64,000 nt of DNA from Powellomyces hirtus (taxonomy: Eukaryota > Chytridiomycota > Chytridiomycetes > Spizellomycetales > Powellomycetaceae). Every line of letters begins with the position of its first letter. Position 1 is the stretch's first letter. A program made the translations under genes and the position numbers. The notes beneath the pieces are model-generated. The model made no database searches, was not told where the DNA came from, and saw nothing but the letters and a program-made list of their open reading frames with translations. The DNA lies in the NCBI GenBank assembly GCA_025526995.1, contig JAHLKG010000023.1:1-64000 (forward strand), given 5' to 3'. Shown piece after piece: positions 4,088-40,184 of the stretch.

Positions 4088-5259
4088 TTGGAGATATAGG
4101 CACTTGCAGTACTTTATCGGAATTGCAGAGGATTGGCCGAATTTGATGTGGCCTCCAGTATACTTTGTAAAGGGGGTTGATTACAGAGCTCTTCTGTGAT
4201 GCAGTTGACGATGTAGTGTTGTCAGATGCACGGGGATGTAATGTATTTTATGTTTTAAAGTCTTATCGGTAATGTCTTGATTCGAGCGTTCCAATCTACT
4301 CTTTCTCCAATCACGTGATTACACATGATCAAATTCAGCTCTTAGCGTTACCAGTATAGCGGTCACGCGTTCCAACAGGGGTTCGAAGTTAGGATCCAAT
4401 GTAAGGACTAGCGTTGAGTACGCAGAGCTCAACATTCCAATATTGGACACATACCTGGCTACGAAGGTGTGCTCTAGTAAGCAATTGCGATCTTACCGAA
4501 CCGGGGGCAAGGTTACAAAACAATGTCTGGGTATAACTGAAGTAGTTGACGTGAACAGTACCCTTGGGACCGTTTCCGGGAAGGGAACTACTGCCTCCTC
4601 AAGAAGATAACTGTACAGTGCTGGCTGCTGGGATTGCCGGGCTACGTAACCTGATTACTCTCTGGATGAGCAGCGGGGCAGCGGGGTGACATGCTAGTTA
4701 TGTCACCACTTGTATGTGTAGTGATATAGTGTGCTTACTTGACCACGCAAGGAGCCGGCCATCGCACTCGCTTTGTCCCAAAGTCGGCGGGAGCGGGCTA
4801 TAAACCCCTAGGCAAGTGCGCACTTTGGACGTGCTGGGGGGATACGCAACCGTTCACCAATCACTAGCCGGCACGCCAAGTGAGAACCTCTGAGCTAGGG
4901 TACTTATTGGAATGTTGAGACTTGAGTACTCAATGTCTGGTCCTTACATTAGATCCTTACTTGGATTCTCCGACTAGAGCGCGTGACCGCCATACCGGTA
5001 ACACTAAGAGCTGAATTGGATCACGTGTGATCACGTGATTGGAGAAAAGGTAGATTAGAACGCTCGAAGCGAAACATTACCAATAAGACTTTAAGACATA
5101 AAATACATTACATTTCCGTGCAGCTGACAATGATACAACGTCATCTGCATCACAGAAGAGCTCTGTAAACCCCCTTTACGAAGTATACTGGAGGCCACAT
5201 CGAATTCGGCCAATCCTCTGCAATTCTGATAAAGTACTGGAAGTGCCGATATCTCCAAT
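4088..5259. mobile_element. foldback / MITE-like element with ~350-bp inverted arms
   Basis: The left arm (about 4088-4444) is the reverse complement, with scattered substitutions and small indels, of the right arm (about 4915-5259). The arm ends read TTGGAGATAT followed by a variable base and GGCACTT. About 470 bp of noncoding sequence lies between. No transposase frame is present, so if it is mobile it would be non-autonomous. I could not find convincing target duplications outside the ends. The arms contain CACGTG/CACGTGAT-type palindromes. Arm divergence of roughly 10 percent suggests an old copy. Confidence 0.75.
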
Positions 5260-9828: not shown

Positions 9829-10403
9829 TCAAGTTGTTCTGCACGTACATCCCCACTCGTTGTCGTACCAACCAATGACTTTAATCATAGTTTCATCAAT
9901 GACCATTGTGGACAGACCATCGACAATGCATGCACGGGGATTGCATCTAAAATCCTCGCTGCCCAACGGCCGCGTTTCGTATCCTAGCGTACCTTTCAAA
10001 TCACCGCTTGCCGCTTTTGCGAAGAAGGCATCCACCTCCTCCACGGTGGTGGCATGACCGACGCGGAAGACGGCGTCGGTTAGCGAAGCATTTAGCAGAG
10101 GCACCCGAACAGCCATGCCGTTCAGCCTTCCTTTGAGTTCCGGGGAAAAAACTACAGTAATCGCGGTGGCAGATCCGGTGCTTGTTGGAACAAGGGATGT
10201 GAAGCAACTCCGAGCCCGGCGCTGATCTTTGTGTGGAGCATCAACAACAATTTGCGTGTTGATCTGCAGTAAGATGTCCCATAAGCAGAAAGCCCACATA
10301 TACGCAAAAAGACTCCTCGATGTGACTCACAACGCAGTGGATGGTTGTCATTGTTCCTTGCAGTATCTTCAAGTTTTCATGGATCAGTATGGACCCAAGA
10401 AGT
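9829..10403 (-). pseudogene. decayed GAPDH, ArsJ-associated/bacterial type
   Basis: Minus strand. The C-terminal half of a glyceraldehyde-3-phosphate dehydrogenase is readable: TMTTIH, then after a 67-bp intron (10264-10330, GTGAGT...TACTGCAG) [66 protein letters not shown] and WYDNEWG. The APHKD-RRAR and [12 protein letters not shown] wording matches the bacterial GAPDH group associated with ArsJ (organoarsenical export), not the usual fungal glycolytic enzyme; that assignment is from memory of the family. The NAD-binding Rossmann half is absent. The region of the catalytic Cys (expected NASCTTN before LGP) is frameshifted and unreadable, and another shift falls just after WYDNEWG. It is therefore a truncated, non-functional remnant, probably of a transferred gene. 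Confidence 0.75.
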
Positions 10404-10791
10404 TGCCGATTCTTACGGCTGATGATCGATCTTCTCCTACAGCCCGTGCCAATGCAATTGGACGCCTTGTGGGTTGTGCCAGTATTACGGTATATGGTTG
10501 TGTCTGTGGACGTCCACGGGCTTTTTAGTGATTTGTGGGATAGTCAGTCTCTTCTTACCCCGGGTTTTGGCAAAGCAAGCAGTACCCCTATCTGTTTGAA
10601 GGTTCCACGACTATGTGTGCCGACGCATCAGCCTTCAATAGGCAGCACTAGCAACCGCGTTTACATCAGTAGCGTACGTATGACATCTGTCTATAGAATT
10701 GTAACTTTTTCACTGTAAAGGCAAGCTGGATCTGCCTTGTGTCCCTTCTCTTCATGGGTTGTCTTCAGCTCGTCAGTTTCCGCTAACTAAA

Positions 10792-12765
10792 CTAACCTAG
10801 TGGGCACGATGTTGCCCGATCACTCTCTTGTACTGTGTCCGTGTACTGGCTCTTTAATAGCTTCTCGGCTTCGGCTAAGCTAGTACGCACAATGTACCTC
10901 GATCCAAGGGGTTCATACTCAATAGGCCAGACAATATCCGTTTTGATACACTTTCGCAGCACCTTCGTCGCATCTACAGCAAATACGTGTCCTTCTGCGG
11001 ATGGTGTTTCCAGACGCTGTAGACGCATGATAAGCGCGTTCGTTTTGCCTTCAACCCTGACTACTTTGGCAAAGGCAGTCATTCCTGATTGATGCGTAAA
11101 CCCAACCACATCTCCTATCCCTGGAACGGGCGCGACGGGCACGTTCTTTTCGCTAACATCGTTAGCACCCAGAACTGTTCTTTTGAACGTTCGGGTAGCA
11201 AACTCCACTCCTTTGCGTTTCCGTTCCAGCGATGAACAATTGTTATACACTGTCTGCTGTACCCTGGTCGACAATGCCATTGATATCAACGCATTCTGGG
11301 CCATAGCAGCCATGCATTTTTTACACTTACCTTAGTGTATGACGCATGGCGCGACTGACGGACTCCCTCAAAAGCTGATGATTCTCAGCGCTTGACGACT
11401 CCATGAAAGTCGTAAAAGAATGGCGCAAAACATTAGGCCCCACCCCGGCTACACCTGTACGCACTTCAACGATACCGGAGAGGTACCCCGTCCATTCACC
11501 TGCGCTGTCAAAGCAGTTGCCACTGCGCTTGCAGAAGAGGTATCCATGAGTTTCGCCGCGGGTGATTGTTAGGCGGACCATAGGGCGCATCAGCCAAAGG
11601 AGGTACTTTAAGAGAACCTCGTCATCAACTGGCAGCTCAACTGCATCCTGCCGCCCGTTGGACTTCCCATTCTTGTAGTCGCTAGAAAAGGAAGAGTGGT
11701 CAATCGAAGGTGCAGTGTGAGTGGTAAGCCTTCTCATGAACTACCTTATCACCGCGATGTAACGTCTGCAGTAGGTGGTGATATGATTTTGGAAGGACGC
11801 CTTGCTCTCGCTCTCGGTCATCACATGGTCTTGCAGCAGCCGCACCTCTTTCGATCGTCCAGGCGGTAGGCACGAGTAAAAGGCTAATGCAACGTAATTT
11901 TGCACTTGCACCACAAGTTCACGGCTAGGTTCGGCAAGGGAAGGTTGATCCCACAAATCACACACAATCAGACGTTGACAACGAACCGCTTCAAGGAACT
12001 AACGTGGTATCGGGTAATGAGTTGGAAGACTTCTGCTGCTGCGGAGATACGCCTTGGTAGTACACACCTGCTCCCAGACTAGCGAGGTGGCTGAATCTGT
12101 ATCATTGTCAATTCTGTTTCGAGCGGCTAGCACCTGATGTTGGTTTCGTGCTTTCAAGAGCCGCGCAATCTTGGGACTTGTTGTGTCAATAGAGTTTGGC
12201 GTGCAAGCAATCTCGGCAGAGCGGTATTTCAGCACATCGATCGCAGAGGTCAAATGATTCGCAAGGCTACCGTGGCTCAAACTCCTGACGCAGCGCAGAT
12301 ATCCATCAACATACTTGAGCTGTGAGGACGGAACGGAACTTGAGTCGCTGACACACGTTAAATTGAAGCACCCCCCGCTGCCCACCATGAATAAGTCCAC
12401 GTCTTCAAAGTGAATAAAGGACGGAGCCCGAAAGCGACGGACTCTTTTAACCATCCCAAGAATCCACAAATCCGTTCTTGGGACTTTGCGATTGTCTGCT
12501 CGTTCCGAGGGCGGCTGTGTCCGCGTCGCAACTCATATGGGGCGCTGAAGAATGCCCGCAATCCATGAAATTCAGCATGATTGAGTGGCGCCATTTCATA
12601 GTCCTGCAGCGTGTAGCTAGCGAGAATGTACACATCAGCAACATGCACTACCTGGACACATTGGAGCAGGCAGGTATGCCTATTTGCCTACCATTTGAAG
12701 CGCACTACACTTTTGATTCCACGTCCAAGATCGTACTCGTCGACATCGGGCATAAGCTGACGCAT
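10792..12765 (-). pseudogene. Crypton tyrosine recombinase, one frameshift
   Basis: Five exons can be joined by splice sites and phase: 12765-12692, 12616-12068, 11998-11745, 11681-11331 and 11263-10792. The first ATG gives a conserved head (MPDVDEYDLGRGIKSVVRF) also present in copy 2. The core-binding part contains MAPLNHAEFHGL and RICGFLGWL. Catalytic pieces of a tyrosine recombinase follow: box I Arg in LPPGRSKEV, box II LRHSFTT, MRHTLR, and the nucleophile in VQQTVYNN directly across the last intron. After the Tyr there are about 140 further residues. Comparison with copy 2 shows a 1-bp deletion just after GFLGWLK (near 12437), which switches frame; all other exons are open. The element is thus recently disabled, unless the deletion is a sequence error. 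Confidence 0.85.
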
Positions 12766-13057
12766 ATGCACAGCTGGGCGGGAGGGTGAGTATGGAAGGT
12801 AATCTGCGCCATTGGAGAAAGAATTTACTGTGGAAGTTGTACGCTCTTCCTGCCTATCTGGAGTTGGCGGTGGGCTCTGGCAAGGTAAGCTCAACCTTAA
12901 TGGCGGTGGTGGCGTTTGCGACTCTTCAGCGGTTACAAGTACCCTGTCGGATCCTGCGTCTTCTTCTGCCAGTTGCCAGTTACTGTCTATGAAGGCCAAC
13001 CAGAGTCAGCCAGTCAGTTAGTCAAGCAGCTTGCTGACAGCCACATGAGCCCAACCG

Positions 13058-13078
13058 TAACCCCTGCCCTAACCCTAA
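13058..13078 (-). repeat. TTAGGG-like motif at the Crypton head
   Basis: On the minus strand the sequence reads TTAGGGTTAGGGCAGGGGTT. The same string with two changes stands ahead of Crypton copy 2 at 16680-16698. A related motif, TAACCCTAACCC, lies at 13435-13446. Confidence 0.7.
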
Positions 13079-13645
13079 GCTCATCAAACCTAGATCTAGT
13101 CTGACCTTCAACTGGACGTAGCTCCTTCAGTTTTTGGTCCAAAGTCGTCAAACGCTGCTCAACTATGCGGCACAGCATACTCTAGAGCCACAGGAAGGAG
13201 CAAAGAAATTGACCTCCTTGTTACAAAGCTTTACTAGACAAAACATGGTTTTTCTGATGTTTTTTGAGGTTTTGTCCGTTTTTCTCCGAAACTAAGGATT
13301 TTTGGGAGGTCCATTTTTGAGCAGGGTCTGGACACACCCAAAGGAACAACTTTAATTAAGGGCTCGAGTCAATCTGAGAACTCAAAATTCCGGCTCATCA
13401 TAACCCATAACCCAGTGGGTCCCCCTTGTAACTTTAACCCTAACCCTTAGCCCGTGATTTTCGATAATGAGGTGCGATTCAACACAGTCCAAAATTACGG
13501 ATGTTCGTCAGCGAGCCGGAAATAGGTATGCACGCCCAAACAGGCGGATGGAATCTTCCCGGGCCCGGGATGGGCTTCATCCCCGCCTATATCAACACAA
13601 CCGTTACTGCACCCGACGGAATCACCTTGTCGAAAATTTCTCATC
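13079..13645. other. intergenic, TAACCC-rich
   Basis: No gene. It includes TAACCC-type motifs (13402-13453) and the presumed promoter of the downstream sensor gene. No TATA box was identified with confidence. Confidence 0.5.
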
Positions 13646-15735
13646 ATGTATCAGCGCACTGCAATCATCGAAGATGAAGAGGCCGGCAGTGGAGCAGATT
13701 ATAAACCTGCCGATTTGGCCACGGAAGCAAAAGATGGCGATGCCCCGCCGCAAAAGTGGTATCAAAAGCTCAGCATGCCCTTGTGGGCGTTGCAGTCTTT
13801 CATCATCACCGGAATTCTGGCAGTCGTTGTGGTGCCGGTACGTTCGAGTGTTCATTCATTTGTCACGGAAATATATGAAAAACAATGGTGGTGCATACAT
13901 CTCCAGTCCAGCACAATCTTTATAACGAACGCATATGCAAATGTTGAAGACAGCGCCCAGACCATGGCAACGGTAAGGTTCCCGCGTTCGCTACACACCT
14001 GCCAGGGAGCTTCTGTGGCTGATCCTTTTACTCTCATACGAATGTTGACTGCTTCAGCTGACCCTGAATTCAGCCAAAGAAGGCCTCCGATCCACCACTG
14101 ACGGTTATCGGAACATTGCGCTGAACTTTGGTCTGAGGACCACTACCTTGGCGGTCGTCAAGACTGCGCTGCAGCCTCGAAACCTGACGTTGACCCCCTT
14201 GGTCGGTTCGGACTTCTTGAAGGACTTCATTCGCCTTACGTATGATAACCTTGACGTGTCGACCATCACTTGTGTTGCCAACACTGGACCGCCAGCTTCG
14301 CCTCCTGGCGGCAATGTCATATTTGGTGTTGGCAAGTGGACGATCGAATCGGAAAAGCCCGTATTCGATGGGCCCAATGGTGGTCTCAAGGATTTGGAGG
14401 GCCTGCTTCCTTGGGGGGCATACTGGACATGGAATCATATGGAGGCCACGGACAAGAACTTCTATTTCAAGAACTCTGTGAACGAAAAGGGCGAATTACT
14501 ACCCGATAAGGCCGTGAAAATCTTCCGACAAGGCTACGAGCAAGACTTCCTCAATCCGGCAAAGAATATCACCAACTACGTGAAGACAGCGCGAGTCTCG
14601 ACTCTCTTCGGCGGAGGGTGGACATACAAGGGGGCTCCCGGGGCGTACAACGCGTCTGCGGATCCTGTTTATCTCGAAATGGTGTCGAACAATCCTCGTG
14701 CTGAAGGAAAATCCATCTGGGTTTACTCGAACGTGTACGGAGCTATCCTGGGGATGAGCTCTGTCAACATCTACGGGAACAGCACGACGCCGACCCACCA
14801 ATGTTCAGTGGGCGGCTTGATGTTTATTTCTTTGGAGCCATACATCCGCCGCCTCCTTCCCTCGCCGTCTTCGGTCGTTTTCCTTTTCGATGCTGTCGGC
14901 ACAGCTCCGGGCGTCAAGCCAAGCTTCAAGCCGGGCACGATAATTGCGTCTTCTATCCAAAACGCGGCTGTCAATCAGGATCGTATTCTCGCTGGAGTTC
15001 CCGGTGCGGGACTGTACACCATTGAGGAGACATGGCATCCGACGATTTCGCAAATCGGTAGGTACTTAATGGCCAAGTACCCCTCGCTGGCCGATCTCGT
15101 CGGGCCAAAGATCATCAAGGCCCGGCTGGGCGACGGAGTGGACTGGTATATCGCAGCAGAGCAAATCAGTATCGACGACGCGGGCAATAAATGGACAATG
15201 GTCATCGCCTTTCCACGACACGATTTCTATTCAGCCATCGACAAGTCTATCTCCAAGAGCATCATTGTCATTTGCTGCTTGAGCTTTGCCGCCCTCGTCT
15301 TCACTGTGGCCGGTTCCATTGCATTTACCATGCCTCTACGTATTCTTGGAGCGTACATGGCGGAAGTTACGCAGATGAAGTTCAAGTGCCTGGAAGGCGG
15401 TCAGATCGACAAACGCAGCTTCGTCCGCGAAATTGCTTCGTTGGAGGCCGCGTTCGCTATTATGGTGAAAGCATTGTAAGTTTCTCCTGCGGAGTTCCTT
15501 CCCTTCCGTTTGTAATGCCTGATGCTTTTGTGGTCTTCATGTAGCGCTGCCGGTATCCGCAAGAATGCATGTAAGACTCAACCCAAATATACATTTGCGT
15601 AAACCATGTTGCCAAACAGCTCACTAACTGCCGACTTTCCGTTCAGCCCTGACTTCAAGGAACAGATCGGGTTCAGCAAGTCAGTCACAGAACTACTCCG
15701 TTATAGGCGCAGCTCGCGGGAGCATTTCAAAGTAG
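13646..15735 (+). CDS. two-TM sensor protein with extracellular Cache-like domain (paralogue 1)
   Basis: Five exons joined by phase: 13646-13837, 13907-13972, 14058-15475, 15545-15570, 15647-15735; 596 aa. A cytosolic N-terminus of about 45 residues precedes one TM helix (LQSFIITGILAVVVVP). About 420 extracellular residues follow, with PWGAYWTWN, GKSIWVYSNVY and DAAGNKWTM-like features (read as DDAGNKWTMVIAFPR), in the style of double-Cache ligand-binding domains. A second TM helix lies near residues 488-512 (IIVICCLSFAALVFTVAG). Then comes a HAMP-like helix (REIASLEAAFAIMVKAF-AAGIRKN), and the protein ends after a 30-residue Ser-rich tail. Homologues I know of in zoosporic fungi carry a cyclase or other output domain here; none is seen. 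The protein is paralogous to the gene at 54847-57494. Ligand and signalling partner are unknown. Confidence 0.8.
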
Positions 15736-16679
15736 ACGCAGCTGCACGTATCCGCAAAATAAGCCAGGAATTCCCACTCAACTTTACCAGTGCAACCCTA
15801 CCGGAAGGCAACCGACGGGCGCAATAAAGAGGCATGAGTATCGTTGGCTCGACCGCGTCGGCAGTAAGCGTCCCATCAAGCGACTGGTTTTGCAGCGCTT
15901 GCCAGGGGTTGAGAAGGCATCCCAGAGCTTCATTTCTGTTATTACTGCACATTATATGTCATATGCTTATTCGCCTGTCATGTCACTGATAGACGCACCA
16001 GATGCCATGCAAACCCGTGTGCGTCCATGGACACTTATCTGTTATTTAGTATGACATGGAGTATCAGTCTTTCTCTTGCAGGCTTTTGGGGTGAGGCGGC
16101 AAGGTGCATGACTCTTAGTTACTCGTTTACAACTTTCTGCGCTGGAGGCTTCTTCTGGCGTCTTTGCTGTCACTACAGCGTTGTAACGACATTGCCAACA
16201 TGTCCGTGGTAGGAGTCCGACAGGCAGTCGACGTATTTTGCTTCAGCTCACGGTGGAATGTGGGGTAGGACATCTGAAAGGAGTATTTGATAGGTCACCA
16301 ACCATCGGGCTGCTTGCTGATGCCATCCACAACAAGGAAGAGCGTCTTCCGGTCAAAGTCACCTTGTGCTTACTAAATTTGCCTCCTTTGCAGACTTCGT
16401 TGGTCATTGGGAGCTTGAGTTTCTTCAAGATATGGGCACCAGATATGGGCACCGGAATGGCCCAACGGTGATGCCGGAGGGTTCCTTCGCTGACAGGGGG
16501 AATGAGACCAGCACCAGCCCCAGAAGAGGCCAACGAAGCGGCCAAAGCCACAGCCCTAGATGGCGGGGCGGCCAACCGAACATCTGTAAATGCAAAGGGG
16601 CCGCCGCCACGTTCTCGACAGAGACATCGGGGCCAAGGGGGGGAGGGGCAGCTGCAGCAGAGCCTAGCTGGGGCTGACA
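15736..16679. other. no supportable gene
   Basis: The downstream flank of the sensor gene and anonymous sequence with a short GATATGGGCACC direct repeat (16430-16455). The stretch after 16480 is GC-rich and low complexity. No domain was recognised on either strand. Confidence 0.4.
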
Positions 16680-17533
16680 TAGGGTTAGGTCAGGGGTTGG
16701 ACGCAAATCCCTACACTAACTGGCGTGTTCCTGCACAAAGGACAAGCGATATCAGCCAATCTCAATGGAAACGTAGGGGAATTCGATGTGTCCGTGGAAG
16801 CAGAATCTATGACTGACGAACACGATATAGTCACCTGTATCAGTGTTGCTCCACCCCGCACCCCTATTGCTAAGGAAAGAACTCTGTCGCCCCAAGGGTG
16901 CTGTCGCCATGCGCATCCATATCCATCGCCACCACGGGATATCCGTTGAGCAATGCCCGATGTCGACTAGGAGGATTTGGTGCGCGGGATTAAGAGCGTG
17001 GTCCGTTTTAAGTGGTGAGTAGGTTCCATAGCGTGATTCTCTTCATTGCCGTCGAAGCTAACTTGCAAACCTCTGCTTAGTTATACACTGCAATCTTTCA
17101 AAACGATGCCGCTCAATCACCTGGAGTTCCATAGATTTTGCAAGTTCTTTAGCGTGCCATATGAGCTGCGCCGGGGGACCAATAGACTGCGCAACAAACA
17201 AACCATTGCAAAGTCGCGGGAACGGATCTGTGGGTTTCTAGGATGGTTGAAGCAATCTGGTCGCTTTACCAACCCCTCCTTTGTCAATGTTGAAGACATT
17301 GCACTGTTCCTGGTGAACCTCTCAGCTTGCTCTTTGACAAATCTACTGCCAGCTTACACTTCCATTTTCTAAACCAAATATGTTGGGGGCTACTTGCGGT
17401 CTATCCGAGAACTCAATCATGGAAGCATTGGAAACCACCCCACATCTGCCATCAATGTTTTAAAATACCACTCTACCGCCCCCAACGTCAATCCGAAAGC
17501 TAATCCATAGATTGCTCAACTCATTCGGTATTA
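16680..17533 (+). mobile_element. Crypton copy 2, 3'-truncated and decayed
   Basis: It starts with the same TTAGGG-like head as copy 1. The first exon (MPDVD, then a stop codon, then RGIKSVVRFK) is recognisable at 16953-17014. After a short intron (GTGAGT...CTTAG) the core-binding exon reads YTLQSFKTMPLNHLEFHRF, RRGTNRLRNKQTIAKSRERI and GFLGWLKQSGRFTNPSFVNV from about 17082. Homology to copy 1 continues, with frame breaks, up to about 17520-17533, where a solo-looking LTR begins. The catalytic exons are missing. Its reading without the 1-bp deletion is what reveals the frameshift in copy 1. Confidence 0.8.
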
Positions 17534-18006: not shown

Positions 18007-20575
18007 TCACCCTCTCTCTTACCGTCGCCTCGTCCTTGGGCGTGGATCGACTTGGGACCGGGGCACGGTTTGTCGGGATACATATTGTGGAATTTGGCAA
18101 GGAGCTCGTCGGCATGAGTGATGTGTGCGGCAGGCTCCCAAGTATTCTCGGAATCAGGCCAGTCTTGCCACTTAATAAAGCACTACAGCCGGCGGCGACG
18201 GATTCTGGAATCAAGGATGGCTTCAACAACCCATTCTTCTTGGCCCTCCACTTCCTCAGGAGGTGGGCTCGGGCTCCACTCGTTTGCGGATGGTGAAGCA
18301 GGGCTCGAGGAGAGAGACGTGGAAACATTGTGGATTTTGTAGGAGGGGGGGAAGCTTGAGGCGGTAAGCAACCGAATTGATCTTCTCGACGACAGAGAAC
18401 GGCCCAATCTTGCGGTTGTCCAGTTTCTTTGAAGGCCTCATGGTCTTGAGGTTTTTGCAGAGGAGCCAAACTTTATCGCCGGGCGCAAAGTCAGGACCCA
18501 GAATTCGCTTTGTGTCGGCGTAGTGCTTCATTCGATCTTGTGCTTCCTTGAGCTGGACGGATGTTCATGGATTTCCTTGATCCGTACGGCACGCACTTCC
18601 GCAGCAGGATTGATAGACTCCGACGTGACGGCAACAGAAGGCTCAATCGAGGGTGGAAACCATTATTGGCGTAGAACGGGGTGGTATGGGTTGATGATTG
18701 AAGGGTGTTATTGTACGCAAACTCCGCCGATGACAGAAGCTCCAACCAGTCGTCTTGTTGATGGTTGCAGAAGCAGCAAAGATACTGCTCCAGGATCTGG
18801 TTGGTGCGTTCTGTTTGACCGTCGCTCTGGGGGTGGAATGCGGAGGAAAGGTTGACCTTGGTACCGAGGAGTCTGAAAAGACGTTTCCAGAATCGGGAGT
18901 CGAACTAGGATCCACGATCAGAGATGATTTTGTCAGGGAGCCCGTGGAGGCGGATGATGCTCTGGAAGACCAGGTCGGCAGTGGACTCGGCAGACTCAGA
19001 CTTGCGGCAGGGAATGAAGTGAGCTAAAACAACAGATGACCACTAGTACAGAGTCACGTCCGCTGACGGGAGGCAGGTCAGTGATGAAGTCCATTGACTA
19101 AGATCCCCAAGGGCGGTCGGGGATGGAGTTGGGCTGGAGAAGACCGTATGGCTTATGACAACTGGATCAGGCTTGGTTGCAGATATCGCAGGACTTGACG
19201 TAGGCCTTGACAAAACGCCACTGGCTGGGCCGCCAGTAGTTGCGAGAAACGAGTTCAAGCATCTTGGACACACCAAAATGACCGGATAGTCGGGTGTCAT
19301 GCATGTCGTAGCAGATCTCGGTTTGGAGCTCGTTGGTGGAAACATAGACAAGGTTATCGAACAGCAGAACTCCGCCTTCTCTGAGAAACGCTTCGCACGG
19401 TCTTAAGTTTCCTCTGTTCATTGGGATTCGGGGATCTTCAGCTGTTTGCGGATGGTCTTGGCAAAGTCATCGCTCATGCAGGCAGCTTTGATCCTGTCAA
19501 GAAGTGAAGAATCAAGGGGAGCGAGGAAAGTGGTAGCGAGGCAGAGACGGTCTGGAGTCAAAATTGTTGTCTCCTGGGAGCGGAACGCTTCTTCCCCTCT
19601 TTTAGCTCGTATTCTGAGCAGCGGGAGAGGGCGTCGGCTAGGTGTTGCTGGGGACCGGGGCGATAGGTAATGACGAAGTCGAAATCAGCAAAGAAAATCA
19701 ACCAGCGGGCTTGGCGGCGGTTCAGGGTTCGGGTGGTCATGAAATATTGAAGGTTTTTATGGTTGGAATAGACGGTAACCGTGTGACGAGCACCAATGAG
19801 ATAGTGCCTCCATTGGGCAAATGAGTCTTGGATCGCAAGAAGCTCCTTATCGTAAATCTCGTAATTGATCTCTTCGGAGGTGAATTTACAGGAGTGGAAG
19901 GCAACAGGGTGGAGTTGCCTCTGCCCGTCCGGTTGGAGGAGAACAGCGCCAATGGCAAAATCGGAGGCGTCGGTCTCAACAAAGAAGGGTTTCTCGGGAT
20001 CAGGATGAACAAGGATGGGTGCTGAGGTGAACGCTTTCTTAAGAGCGTCAAAGGCGGCTTGAGCGACCGCAGTCCATTTGAAAGGGAGGTCCTTGCGCGT
20101 CAGGGATGTGAGCGGGGCGGCGATCTTTGAATAGCCTTGGATAAACCGGCGGTAGAAGTTGGCAAAACCAAGGAAGCGTTGAATGCCTTTAACATTGGTG
20201 GGTGGTTCCCAATCTGTGATGGCGGCGATCTTCTTGGGGTCCATCTGGATTCCGTTCTCGGAGATAATGAAGCCTAGGAACTCGACGGATTCATGGTTGA
20301 ACTCGCATTTTTCGGGTTTGGCATACAAGCCGTGGTGACGGAGGCGGGATAGGACCGCGCGGACGTGTTTCGGGCGATCCTCGGGGTTCTGGGAGAAGAT
20401 CAGAATATCATCGAGGTACACTACGACGAAAACATTGAGGATGTCACGGAAAATATCATTCATCAGGTACTGGAAAACACCGGGAGCGTTGCTGAGGCCG
20501 AAGGGCATGACATTGTACTCAAACAGACCGTAGCGGCAGCGAAAGTATAGAGATGAGCGGTTTCTGTGTAGGAGT
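18007..20575 (-). pseudogene. chromovirus (Ty3/gypsy) pol, 5'-truncated, broken
   Basis: Minus strand, in order. The reverse transcriptase starts in mid-domain (RYGLFEYNVMPFGLSNAP, then catalytic VVYLDDILIFS). RNase H follows (FFVETDASDFAIGAVL). The integrase zinc finger has H-x-H-C-C (HDTRLSGHFGVSK ... SCDICNQA). A badly broken integrase core and C-terminal part come next (FAYNNTLQSSTHTTPFYAN; GPDFAPGDKVWLL). Last is a chromodomain-like end (EEWVVEAILDSRIRRR, an in-frame TAG, then CFIKWQDWPDSENTWEPA). Gag, protease and the N-terminal half of the reverse transcriptase are absent. RT-RNase H is open for 316 codons, but integrase has several frame breaks, so the element is dead. It is host-genome retrotransposon debris. 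Confidence 0.9.
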
Positions 20576-20598
20576 TGAAGGCCGGAACATTGGCCGTA

Positions 20599-20664
20599 GT
20601 TGATGACTACTTTGTGGAAGTCATGTGCGTTCGGTTGATGACTACTTTGTGAAGGTCATGTGCG
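20599..20664. repeat. two-copy 35-bp tandem repeat
   Basis: GTTGATGACTACTTTGTG is followed by a near-identical tail in both units, at 20599-20629 and 20634-20664. It lies between the truncated retroelement and the next gene. Confidence 0.85.
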
Positions 20665-20847
20665 AAGGACACGCGGCAGCGCTCTCTCCCAAACAACTCT
20701 TTAAAAGCAGCTTCCGCGTCGTGTCCCCGCAGTTTTGATCTGCACCCTTCTGCTGTCCACCCAATTCTTACCATTTCGTACGAATTGTCCACTCCTGCAA
20801 ATCGTACCTCGTCAAGCAAGAACACTCAAAGTCCCCGTGCTCGTCCG

Positions 20848-22730
20848 ATGCTGTGTTACGTTGTTCTAGCACTTCTTCCCATCTTCTTTTTGACATCTGC
20901 GGCTCCGCTTGCTGCTCATGATGCTCCCGGTCTCTTCCCTGCTACACTACCTGCCGACTATTGTCGACCACCATTGCCACCTCTGCTAACAAAGCTAACC
21001 TGGACTCATGACATGAAGGAACGGCTTTTTCTATTGAATGAGAGATTTGGAAGCCTGTTAAAGGACCTTTATCAAAAGACGCATCCCAACTCCAGTCAAC
21101 AAGTCGTTGTGTCCGTCGTTTTGGGAAACCGAACCATTTCATCTCATGGCATCGGCCACTTGATATCGAATGATTCTACGACGCCAGTGGTTGATGCGAA
21201 CAGCATCTTTCGCATAGCTTCTATATCCAAAGTGTTTACGGCGCTTCACCTGTTGTTGGCCCAGGAAGACGGCTTGGTTAAGGAAGATGACAAGCTGACG
21301 GCGTATCTGAAAGACTTCACCATGATTGATCCTTCCGGGAAGGACAGCGTGAATGACATCAATCTTGCAATGCTTGCCTCCCATGATTCGGGCATTCCGC
21401 CTAACGGTACGTTTGCCTGTTGATGGCAAGCGTCGCACGACATGTTAACCATTATGATGTTTGTTAGCCTGTCCCGTTGTAAGAAGCTTGGAGGACACTT
21501 ACAATTGTCCAAACACGTGGGTACACGCCATCAGAAAAGAAGTAGATATCCATTAATGACGAACTGAGACTCCCGTAGGGACAAAGAGCTCTTTCCATTG
21601 CTTGCAAGACGATCATTGGTGTTCCAACCCAATGGTCGATTCCCACTTTGTAAGTGACCTTTACAGACAAACTGCATACTTTATGATTCGCTCTAACCGC
21701 TCCCTCCTTTAACAAAGATTCCAATCTGGCCTTTGGCCTGCTTAGTCGCGCCATTGAAACGGCTGCTCAGGAGGATCAGATATCATACCTGAGACGTAAA
21801 GTGTTTGATAAGCTTGGAATGGACTCAACGGCATACGAGGCGGTCTCACCAGACAGGATGGCCCGAACACCTGCAACAAATTTGCTCGATTTCGGATATA
21901 TGAACCCGGGTGCCGGCTTCTACAGCACAGCAAACGACCTGTCCAACTTCCTGTCAGGCTTTCTCTTACGTGAAAATTCAGGTGTCCTCAGGGATGTAAC
22001 TATTCGCCACTGGCTAAAACCGACATCTTTCTTTCCCGATGCCGGCAGAGTATTTTATGGAATGCCGTGGGAAATCATACGTACCTCGTCGATGAACCTC
22101 TTCACGAAAGCTGGCACGGCACCACCATACAACTCGCAGATTGGCTTCCTGCCAGACCTGGGTCTAGGTCACGTTCTGTTGCACACGGGTGATCAGGTCG
22201 GCTATGGATTGTTGTCAACATCGATTCATCAGTTTTGGCGTGACGAGCTGGTGGACCTTCAGTCGGAGCTTGCCAAAGAGCGCTATGCTGGAATCTACCG
22301 ATCAAACAATGGTTATTGCTACAACGTAGATGTGGTAAACGCAACACTTGTTTTGCGTGAACTCGTTACACCTCAAAACGACACGGCTGTTTTCTCCTTC
22401 TACCTCGCAAGTTTTCTCACAAAAGACACACCCGCGGTCTTGGTCAACTCTTTTGACATAGATGAATTCAGGTATGTTGTTTTCATAATCCCGGTGGCGA
22501 GTAACGTCGCTATGCTAATGAAAGCCCCCAGAATTGGACTTACCTTCGAGGGGTTAGTACCGGGATGTTATATTACATCAGCCACGTTGGACCCGCTTGC
22601 GGATGAGTTTGGAAACTCTGGAGATTTAATTCGTTTTGTGAACGCTGGGAGTGACGATCGGATTCTAGTGCACAACTACTTCAAAGCGGAAGGGGGGCTT
22701 GATAAACAAAGCAAAACTTGCGCAATGTAA
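20848..22730 (+). CDS. secreted beta-lactamase-fold serine hydrolase
   Basis: Five exons in phase: 20848-21406, 21468-21516, 21579-21649, 21718-22471, 22532-22730; 543 aa. The ATG is followed by a clear signal peptide (VVLALLPIFFLTSAAPLA). The class C/LACTB-like fold is shown by the SxxK motif (Ser125-Ile-Ser-Lys128 in FRIASISKVF), the YxN motif (Tyr-Ser-Asn at residues 227-229, split by intron 3), then GAGFYSTANDLSNFL. A possible third motif is KAG in FTKAGTAPP or HTG in LLHTGDQVG. N-glycosylation sequons are present. Fungal members of this family are usually peptidases or esterases of unknown substrate, not antibiotic-resistance enzymes. The upstream frame continues without an ATG, so 20848 is the chosen start. 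Confidence 0.85.
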
Positions 22731-37383: not shown

Positions 37384-37482
37384 GAAGCTCTGGATGACAA
37401 GTAGAGGGGGGAGCTAAGGGACGTCCCCATTTTATATTCCAGATGAAAACAGCTTCCCTCTCTACTTGTCATCCAGAGCTTC
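37384..37482. repeat. inverted repeat, ~31-bp arms, upstream of the phospholipase gene
   Basis: GAAGCTCTGGATGACAAGTA at 37384 is matched by its reverse complement ending at 37482; arms agree over about 31 bp with a 35-bp loop. It lies in the presumed promoter of the minus-strand lipase. It could be a hairpin, a dimeric operator or a tiny foldback insertion. Confidence 0.8.
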
Positions 37483-37513
37483 AAAGTGTGGTTGGCGCGG
37501 TCGGAATCTAGGA

Positions 37514-37890
37514 AGACGTTTGAGTTTTGCCGTTTGCCGCTGCATGTTACGTTTGTTGTTGACAGGTCCCGCTGGAGGACTAAAGGGCCACATTGACAAG
37601 AGTTTTGTCGAAGCTTGACCAGACGTTTTGGTTTTGCCGATTCCCGCTGCATGTTACGTTTGTTGTTGACAGGTCCCAGTGGCAGGTCCCACTGGTGGAC
37701 CAAAGGGCCGCGTTGACAAGAGTTTTGTCGACGCATGAGTAGACGTTTTAGTTTTGCCGTTTCCCGCTACGTGTTACGTTTGTTGTTGACAGGATCAAAC
37801 GGCCACATTGACAAGAGTTTGGTCAAACTCCGAGTAGACATTTTGGTGTTGCCGTTTCCCGCAGCATGTCACTTTGTCAGAGGCTTCCAC
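37514..37890. repeat. ~95-120-bp tandem repeat, 3.5 copies
   Basis: Units start AGACGTTT/AGACATTT at 37514, 37621, 37741 and 37836. Shared cores are GTTACGTTTGTTGTTGACAG and TTGACAAGAGTTT. Length differences come from internal indels such as a duplicated GGTCCCAGTGGC piece. Confidence 0.8.
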
Positions 37891-38150: not shown

Positions 38151-38244
38151 GGGTCGTTTGTCTGGCTCATATCCTCCGGCAAAACCCCACGCACGCATCT
38201 CGGACAGTCGTCCTGAGAATATCAGAATTGCGAGTCCGTCACTT

Positions 38245-38506
38245 CACGCGAGCAGGTGGTCGACCCCTGGCTGGAGGATTCATAGCAGAACTCTGTCAGC
38301 TCACGCGAGCAGGTGGTCGACCCCTGGCTGAAGGATTCATATCAGAACTCCGTCAGCTCACGCGAGCAGGTGTTTGACCCCTGGCTGGAGGATTCATAGC
38401 AGAACTCCAGCAGCTCACGCGAGCAGGTGTTTGACCCCTGGCTGGAGGATTCATAGCAGAACTCCGTCAACTCACGCGAACAAGTGGTCAACCCCTGGCT
38501 CGAGGA
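38245..38506. repeat. 57-bp minisatellite, ~4.6 copies
   Basis: Units start CACGCGAGCAGG at 38245, 38302, 38359, 38416 and 38473, an exact 57-bp spacing. A 57-bp unit is 19 codons; the plus-strand reading is LTRAGGRPLAGGFIAELRQ-like but is broken by stops in units 3 and 4. No CRISPR character, since there are no unique spacers. Confidence 0.9.
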
Positions 38507-39400
38507 TGATCAGTTTACAGCAGTGACCTACGTCAGTTGGACGTGAGGCCTCTTTCTTGAAGGGGACTCCAGCGGGTTCAAAGAGATTCCGCTGGCCGTG
38601 TGGTCAAGCCGCGTATTTCTCCACCTCGCGTGTTCAAACCGCGTGGCTTCCGCAAAAGAGACTCCTGTTGTTTAAAGAGACCCCTGTTGTTATTTGGCGA
38701 CCGCGTGGCAAAAGCACTGTACGATCACAGGCAGTTGTGGGATATGTGGTCGCACTGACTGCTTTATACTTGTAGACTGGCTGCGGAGTCCGGAGAGGGA
38801 AGGGCGGAAGCGGAGCGGGACGCAACTGGGCACTACGAAACGACGTTAAGTTTTCCCTACCGTTTTCTGACTCGGAGCAAAAGACGAGGACTGGTGTCGA
38901 CTGCATAGGGTGTACAGTATGTTTTTGCCCGAACCTACTGCATGTGAACTCGTGGTGGTGATGCGTTTCACAGTTCAGCAATGGCGGCAGACGCGAATAG
39001 TTCGCGGAACGAATTGGCGAACGCGCAATACCATTTTCTGAGATGCTGCTCGAAGGAGGTCGGCCTTTTCAGAGGTTTCCATGTGGTTCAGAACTTCGAA
39101 ACCTTGGAAGTCATAGTCGTGGTTAATTGCAACTGGTGGCGCCAGGATTGTTGCCACAATGGCGCGCTGGCTACCGGATTGCGCCTGCCAAGCGATTGGT
39201 AGCGCTCGAAGTGTCCCGGCGTTGTCAATTGTATCAATTGTCTTAGCCTACCGCGCAGCCTCGCCCACCAGGTGCAGCGACGATGCACGCACCTCTTTTT
39301 CCATATATTTACCACTACGGTTTGGCGCGTGGGCAAATGATGAGGCCTACTTTGTCTTTTTCTCATGGGACGCTTGCAAGTTGGTTGATATTTTCCGTAG
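38507..39400. other. no supportable gene
   Basis: Short frames only. A minus-strand peptide at 38975-39157 has some coding character but no start or domain. Confidence 0.35.
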
Positions 39401-39622
39401 TTATACGCTGCGAAACGTCGATGTGACGCCACTCAATCACCTGGAGATCCATCGGCTGCTCGCTCTCTTTAGCGTCCAATATGAGCCAGAAGGAGAAACA
39501 GCAGACCTCGCGATGTACAGACAATGCAAGCGGATTTGTGGGTTTCTAGGATGGTTGAAGCAGTCTGGTTAAATTTTGAACCCCTCATTCGTGAATTTTG
39601 AAGACATCGAGCTGTTCCTGTG
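39401..39622 (+). mobile_element. Crypton fragment, copy 3
   Basis: After an intact splice acceptor (TTTTCCGTAG) the core-binding exon reads YTLRNVDVTPLNHLEIHRLL, then RICGFLGWLKQSG, a TAA, and ILNPSFVNFEDIELFL before homology ends. Only this exon remains. Its preserved acceptor shows it derived from an unspliced genomic copy. It carries a different disabling mutation from copies 1 and 2. Confidence 0.75.
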
Positions 39623-40184
39623 AGCTTTCGAACCCCGCCGTTCGAGAAACTCTCTCAAGTGCAGACACTCATACACCTCGTTCAAGATCAAAGATGGTGA
39701 AGGACACTTGTTGGCGGTTGTCTGAAAGGAAAATCTGGAGGAATCCGGTTGTACTGGTGCGAGGCCAGCGCGTAAAGTCATGTTCTAAATGTACAGTCGA
39801 AGCCTGGCGGTTGAGCTGTGTTCAGCTGCAAGCTGCAAAGCGTTCAAAGCAGAAATCTGGTAATTCTTTGGAAACGGAATAATAATTTGTAGTCGGTCGG
39901 TAAAGAGTCTTCGCGGTGTTGAACCTACCACTAAAAACTATAGCCCCAGTAGCATTACCGTCACAGGTGTATCGTTCTGGCGATGGGGATGGCTACGCTG
40001 AGTTGCCTCTTGCCAGGTATCTGGATCGATAATGGGAAATGGTTGGCTCCCATGCAACCAAAAGCAGTCGTACTAATTGTGAAAGACTCGACTGCAGATA
40101 AATGTGGGTGCATGCAGTTGCGGGAACCCATTTTATGAAGCCAATAAGCTGAACTTCATGGTATATAGTTATCGAGTCAAAAAG
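39623..40184. other. no supportable gene
   Basis: No gene recognised. It contains the presumed promoter of the small secreted protein. Confidence 0.4.

What the first reader, a model, noticed from the sequence alone, without database searches (positions are those of the whole stretch)
10740..13080. Near-intact spliced Crypton disabled by one base
Five exons with conserved phases reassemble a full tyrosine recombinase (box I Arg, LRHSFTT, MRHTLR, VYNN). Comparison with copy 2 shows a single 1-bp deletion after GFLGWLK. Multi-intron Crypton genes with a recent inactivation suggest intact copies elsewhere in the genome.
Basis: partly seen in the sequence, partly recalled or inferred. Interest (0 to 1): 0.8.

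Follow-up and report, generated by a model that had tools for sequence, protein, structure and literature searches.

The report
Broken recombinase gene near chromosome ends
The stretch is a real but frame-broken, intron-containing gene for a DNA-rearranging enzyme (a tyrosine recombinase), one of about fourteen mostly decayed copies found near contig ends of a chytrid fungus, several of them starting beside telomere-like sequence, which makes it a lead on a little-known mobile or chromosome-end gene family.

Summary
The gene is real: minus strand, about 13082-10792, six exons and five GT-AG introns, not five and four. Exon 2 is one base short (231 nt; 232 in two relatives); exons 3-6 are open for 442 codons. 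The host is Powellomyces hirtus, a chytrid. The protein is a tyrosine recombinase (YR): a core-binding part like XerA and Cre in a fold comparison, conserved R-K-R-H-Y, a Tudor-like tail, but N or T for the HxxR histidine. Named relatives were all chytrids. 'Crypton' is not established. One relative in the genome (contig C8) has an intact 600-codon gene, but of another lineage (60% identity), so no sister copy dates the inactivation. The window copy also lacks an N-terminal exon found at C14a and in other species. Beyond the finding: 14 of 14 loci lie within 45 kb of a contig end (Gypsy control 3 of 24), and copies on unrelated flanks share a left border at a telomere-like site, TTAGGGTTAGGTCAGGGG. 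Insertion by the recombinase or telomere-seeded duplication could explain this; the right end was not found.

The parts
13059..13082 (-). telomere-like left-border motif: 16-mer GGTTAGGGCAGGGGTT (13074-13059), preceded by CTTAG
   Evidence: Pattern search finds it one mismatch from the C8/C14b/copy 2 border; six borders compared
12692..12765 (-). exon 1 from the first in-frame ATG; the frame is open up to 13005 and the true start is uncertain
12617..12691 (-). intron 1 (75 nt, GT-AG), shared with C8
12386..12616 (-). exon 2 (231 nt), carries the one-base deficit after GFLGWLK
   Evidence: 231 nt against 232 nt in C8 and in window copy 2
12320..12385 (-). intron 2 (66 nt, GT-AG), shared with C8
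12068..12319 (-). exon 3
11999..12067 (-). intron 3 (69 nt, GT-AG), shared with C8
11745..11998 (-). exon 4, box I Arg (PPGRSKE)
11682..11744 (-). intron 4 (63 nt, GT-AG), shared with C8
11331..11681 (-). exon 5, Lys (DYKN), NVLRHSFTT and MRHT
11264..11330 (-). intron 5 (67 nt, GT-AG); also in the C17 674-676 kb copy by reading, absent in C8, C14a, C14b, C37, C3
10792..11263 (-). exon 6, Tyr (VYNN) and Tudor-like C-terminal part, stop codon
   Evidence: fold of the relative P0001
16678..17606 (+). copy 2: truncated copy of the C8/C14 lineage with the same left border (16683-16698); 92.7% identical to C8 over 849 bp
39372..39630 (+). copy 3: exon 1-2 fragment of the same family

Best explanation
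The feature is a pseudogene, or nearly so, of an intron-containing tyrosine recombinase from a YR family, so far seen in chytrids only, whose copies lie near contig ends of Powellomyces hirtus. The enzyme has, in order, an N-terminal domain missing in most copies here, a Cre/Xer-like helical core-binding domain, a catalytic domain with Arg, Lys, Arg, His and nucleophile Tyr, and a Tudor-like barrel that may tether it to chromatin. Most likely it cut and rejoined DNA at the telomere-like site at the left border of its own gene and spread among chromosome ends that way. Shown: gene structure, family, the one-base lesion, location near contig ends, shared left border. Inferred: catalysis, mobility, the site being its substrate, the role of the barrel.
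Against: No right end, target-site duplication or terminal direct repeat found. The HxxR histidine is N or T in 24 of 24 rows. The shared stretch of C14a and C14b ends on the right without the motif, and C14a's likeness to window 15446-15766 runs past that point, so the 6.6 kb C14 unit is not a clean transposon. Much of the catalytic part of both models has pLDDT under 50, and Foldseek gave nothing at E<=0.001. Of nine contig ends that hold the 14 loci, seven were looked at: two carry telomere repeats (C3, C37), five do not (C8, C14, C17, C20 start, C23).
Confidence: 0.55

Rival explanations
1. Subtelomeric duplication without transposition: a telomeric 3' overhang or an interstitial repeat anneals at the telomere-like site in the first intron and copies a variable length downstream (break-induced replication), so copies share a left border, differ in length and gather at chromosome ends. 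The YR gene is a passenger.
For: Shared left border with likeness running 0.85 kb (copy 2), 2.6 kb (C8) and 6.6 kb (C14b) to the right; CTTAGGG in the G-strand sense leads into the border, as a primed 3' overhang would, exactly in the window copy, C14b and the C17 705.9 kb copy and one base off in copy 2, 4 of 6; all 14 loci near contig ends.
Against: The 16-mer is kept with one mismatch in the window copy although the next 60 bp are only 23-32% like the others without gaps, which suggests a use for the site; transcription points to the nearer contig end in only 9 of 14 loci (strands).
Confidence: 0.35
2. The frame break is an assembly or sequencing error and the gene is open apart from its missing N-terminal exon.
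For: Exons 3-6 are fully open, all five introns are GT-AG, and the lesion is one base.
Against: Several other copies are plainly decayed (stops in C14a/b, frame breaks in C17 and C37, truncation of copy 2), so a lesion here is unremarkable.
Confidence: 0.15
3. It is an ordinary CryptonF transposon.
For: A YR gene with introns in a fungus, with no reverse transcriptase recognised in three neighbouring reading frames of the C14 unit.
Against: No GCR1_C reported for 22 relatives, no match to a named Crypton in the homology searches, no terminal direct repeats located, HxxR histidine replaced.
Confidence: 0.06
4. It is a remnant of an integrated DNA virus that carried a telomere-specific YR, as in the endogenous nimaviruses of crustaceans.
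For: Such viruses insert into (TAACC)n and carry a dedicated YR family (PMC10871703, abstract and passages).
Against: A scan of 2.9 million viral contigs with two peptide patterns gave 8 stretches, none confirmed as a relative; three neighbouring C14 reading frames have no Pfam match over a curated cut-off, the nearest being a baculovirus coiled-coil family at E 0.042.
Confidence: 0.04

Closest known systems
Cryptons (Kojima and Jurka 2011, PMC3212892; section 6 and passages read)
   Same: YR-encoding elements in fungi, with a further C-terminal domain in CryptonF; no long terminal repeats
   Different: No GCR1_C or DUF3504 found; Tudor-like C-terminus instead; HxxR histidine is N/T; no 4-6 bp terminal direct repeats shown; telomere-like left border; bias to contig ends
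Telomere-associated YRs of endogenous nimaviruses (PMC10871703; abstract and passages read)
   Same: A YR linked to telomere-repeat sequence
   Different: The majaniviruses among them are 278-401 kb and flanked by telomere repeats at both ends; here only one border is known, and no sequence comparison with those YRs was made
CryptonV (as cited in PMC8869645; passages read)
   Same: YR elements with a reported preference for simple repeats
   Different: Reported from cnidarians with microsatellite targets; no sequence comparison was made
DIRS and Ngaro retrotransposons (PMC3783388; passages read)
   Same: YR
   Different: Retrotransposons; no reverse transcriptase was recognised in the three C14-unit reading frames scanned. 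That paper reports no detectable YR elements of its kinds in Spizellomyces punctatus and Batrachochytrium dendrobatidis
Xer and Cre recombinases
   Same: Core-binding fold; R-K-R-H-Y (recalled for Xer/Cre)
   Different: No Tudor-like domain and HxxR histidine present there (recalled)

Membership tests
Tyrosine recombinase superfamily | Conserved Arg I, Lys, Arg II, His III and nucleophile Tyr (column assignment is mine) | tested here: met
   R 23/23, K 24/24, R 23/24, H 22/22, Y 21/21 of the rows of 26 with a letter there
Tyrosine recombinase superfamily | Catalytic-domain profile match | tested here: met
   PF00589 at 2e-5, in 1 of 22 relatives only, a protein that carries the C-terminal half twice; phrog_1 integrase 1.7e-9 in the same protein; XerD model best 0.0026, 2 of 16. 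The window exons and P0001 alone have no match
Tyrosine recombinase superfamily | Core-binding plus catalytic fold | tested here: inconclusive
Crypton | R-H-R-Y tetrad (PMC3212892), taken as including the HxxR histidine | tested here: not met
   N in 14 and T in 10 of 24 rows
Crypton | Short (4-6 bp) direct repeats at both termini | tested here: inconclusive
   Left border found; right end not located
CryptonF | C-terminal GCR1_C domain | tested here: not met
   0 of 22 relatives at E<=0.1; none in the window exon pieces at E<=1
Crypton-derived animal genes | DUF3504 domain | tested here: not met
   0 of 22 relatives at E<=0.1
Starship captains | DUF3435-type YR (name recalled) | tested here: not met
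   Not among the five families reported for 22 relatives
DIRS/Ngaro | Reverse transcriptase in the same element | tested here: inconclusive
   Three reading frames of the C14 unit show none by Pfam, but the element's limits are unknown

The most novel reading that the evidence does not exclude
A YR mobile element whose recombination site is a telomere-like sequence inside the first intron of its own recombinase gene. Integrated units would begin at this site without the N-terminal exon and carry that exon at their far end, so that the full-length enzyme is rebuilt only in a circle or a head-to-tail array; insertion into telomere-like DNA would keep the element at chromosome ends. C14 fits: two units with left borders 10,388 bp apart, the N-terminal exon lying about 60 bp before the second border. 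Against it: no other copy shows the exon at a right end, and an isolated N-terminal exon lies 245 kb inside contig C12.
Probability: 0.1. Interest if true: 0.85.

Novelty: new variant of a known kind. Interest (0 to 1): 0.5.

Why it matters
A 2013 survey reported no detectable YR elements of the retrotransposon kinds in the two chytrids it looked at (PMC3783388, passages). A chytrid YR family with a telomere-like border, a strong bias to contig ends and a Tudor-like tail would be a tractable case of a recombinase tied to chromosome ends, known otherwise, in what I read, from endogenous giant viruses of crustaceans. If the recombinase does use the telomere-like site, it is a candidate agent of chromosome-end change in fungi. 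The window copy itself is an ordinary decayed member.

Tried and rejected
Pfam and PDB-sequence searches with window exons, and Pfam and phrogs scans of the C8 protein or P0001, gave no YR match, nor did PDB-sequence searches with the profile or with P0010; YR identity rests on relatives, conserved columns and fold. PF00589 searched in the genome gave nothing. Two AlphaFold models were poor in the catalytic half; Foldseek gave nothing at E<=0.001, and the second model's list is led by phycocyanins, which I take as noise. Telomere healing of a broken 5' end was rejected: it would leave CCCTAA, not TTAGGG, reading into the gene. Transcription toward the contig end (9 of 14) is not significant by my reckoning. 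I first took the 6.6 kb C14 unit for the transposon and dropped this when likeness ran past its right end. A splice-acceptor reading of the border was dropped because, by reading, the frame after it closes. Of 12 motif matches with up to 2 mismatches (reversed-pattern control 23), six are family borders, one (C28, 3.7 kb from a contig end) has short likeness to them (E 0.003) and five with 2 mismatches were not examined. The C17 705.9 kb and C28 places were found by the motif, so their having it is not independent evidence. The Gypsy control used 24 places, some merged from two pieces, of 129 listed matches, only on contigs whose length I knew. The Fisher test treats loci as independent, which tandem copies are not. 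A search for N-terminal-domain proteins of 60-190 residues gave seven, two from Thoreauomyces marked partial and five unnamed: undecided.

Full report
What was claimed. The finding describes a five-exon Crypton recombinase at 10740-13080 disabled by one base. The gene is on the minus strand. Splicing by GT-AG and by comparison with a relative gives six exons (12765-12692, 12616-12386, 12319-12068, 11998-11745, 11681-11331, 11263-10792) and five introns of 75, 66, 69, 63 and 67 nt. The start is uncertain: 12765 is the first in-frame ATG, but the frame is open to 13005. Exon 2 has 231 nt against 232 in the C8 copy and in window copy 2, which puts what follows in exon 2 out of frame. Copy 3 has 220 nt, in the phase of C8, and five of the nine copies tried could not be measured. 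Exons 3-6 read 442 codons to the stop.

Host and copies. The window lies on contig C23 of a 29.26 Mb genome in 60 contigs. P0001, 100% identical over 86% of the C8 protein, is named Powellomyces hirtus, and P0001, P0002, P0003 and P0022 lie on contigs of exactly the lengths of C8, C14 and C37; P. hirtus is a chytrid. Searching the genome with three exons and checking the loci with seven relatives gives 13 places with coding similarity: C3, C8, C9, C14 (two), C17 (two), C20 (two), C23 (three) and C37. A fourteenth (C17, 705.9 kb) was found through its border motif and reads by eye like the start of the C8 copy, though no protein match was reported there. A border relic on C28 may be a fifteenth. 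C8 carries an open 600-codon gene with four introns. C14a and C14b have two stops each in exons 3-5, and C17 and C37 have frame breaks. The fifth intron is present in the window copy and, by reading, in the C17 674-676 kb copy, and absent in C8, C14a, C14b, C37 and the C3 fragment. A Borealophlyctis protein appears to have it read through, so its absence looks like a precise loss.

Age and selection. Between C8 and C14a/b dN/dS is 0.19 and 0.20. Between C8 and the window copy identity is 60.5% over 415 codons, with synonymous differences at 0.86 (saturated) and non-synonymous at 0.26. In a tree of 22 rows the window copy is a long branch of its own beside Fimicolochytrium and Geranomyces lineages; the tool calls the place of such long rows unsure. 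The family has probably been kept by selection for a long time, and the window copy has no close sister here. 'Recent' inactivation cannot be dated; it rests only on the open state of exons 3-6.

Missing N-terminal exon. C14a has, just upstream, an exon for a domain of about 110 residues also found at the start of Fimicolochytrium P0010 and P0016 and Borealophlyctis P0025. Three versions of it have no Pfam match. Three searches found it in the genome only at C14 and, alone, at C12:584.7 kb, 245 kb from the nearer end of an 830 kb contig. The window copy and the C8 copy lack it.

Left border and location. C8, C14b and copy 2 are 97-98% alike over the 60 bp after the motif and unlike before it; the same border marks C14a, whose upstream exon lies about 60 bp before it. 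The border reads TTAGGTCAGGGG, preceded by CTTAGGG in C14b, the window copy and C17 705.9 kb, by CATAGGG in copy 2, and not by a repeat in C8 and C14a. The 16-mer survives with one mismatch in the window copy although the next 60 bp are 23-32% like the others without gaps. The 14 loci lie 1.5 to 44.1 kb from a contig end; 3 of 24 Gypsy places on six contigs lie within 46 kb (Fisher p 7e-8, treating loci as independent, which tandem copies are not). Of the nine contig ends concerned, seven were looked at: C3 and C37 end in telomere repeats, while C8, C14, C17, C20 (start) and C23 do not. So 'subtelomeric' is an inference for most of them.

How it may work. The anatomy is that of a recombinase that binds DNA with a Cre/Xer-like clamp and cuts with a tyrosine. 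The conserved telomere-like site beside the gene is the natural candidate for its substrate, and telomere-repeat-specific insertion linked to a YR is reported for endogenous nimaviruses (PMC10871703, abstract and passages). A telomere-seeded copying process without transposition explains the same border with variable right lengths (0.85, 2.6, 6.6 kb) about as well. No right end or target duplication was found, so I do not choose firmly between them. The Tudor-like barrel may guide the enzyme to chromatin; its binding residues were not examined.

Known or new. Cryptons are the closest kind, but the marks tested were not met or could not be tested (PMC3212892, section 6 and passages). In the listed parts I saw no paper whose title or abstract start reports this family or a YR with a Tudor domain; the library is open-access only and long lists were cut. 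PMC3783388 (passages) reports no detectable YR elements of the kinds it sought in Spizellomyces punctatus and Batrachochytrium dendrobatidis. I rate it a new variant of a known kind.

Noticed in passing
window 9829-10326 (-): C-terminal part of a glyceraldehyde-3-phosphate dehydrogenase (PF02800, 1.3e-39), about 470 bp downstream of the recombinase stop and on the same strand; whether it is a fragment or part of a gene was not settled.
   Followed up: partly
window 4088-5258: Long inverted repeat (arms of 91 and 192 nt, 95% and 88% complementary); its arms match C3:4875-5242, C3:27264-27633 and C17:714219-714540, the last just before a recombinase copy. Looks like a terminal-inverted-repeat element near contig ends.
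   Followed up: partly
window 19558-20655 (-): Gypsy-type reverse transcriptase and RNase H; 36-47% identical to the other 128 matches listed in the genome.
   Followed up: partly
window 20653-22730 (+): Beta-lactamase-family hydrolase gene (PF00144) in two open pieces, starting next to the Gypsy fragment on the other strand.
   Followed up: partly
window 15446-15766: 75.7% identical to C14:4972-5280, at the right side of the C14 recombinase unit; the likeness runs past the point where C14a and C14b part.
   Followed up: partly
L011 6773-7771 (+) and 7768-8535 (+): Reading frames opposite to the recombinase (333 and 256 aa) found also in C14b (333 and 254 aa), no Pfam match over a cut-off; cargo or second element gene unknown.
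   Followed up: partly
window 37453-37888 and 38178-38519: Repeats with spacings of 95-120 bp and of 57 bp just before recombinase copy 3.
   Followed up: no
L052 (C12:584702-584965, -): Isolated N-terminal recombinase-type domain, 67% identical to Fimicolochytrium P0010 over 75 residues, far from a contig end; no recombinase body was found on C12.
   Followed up: partly
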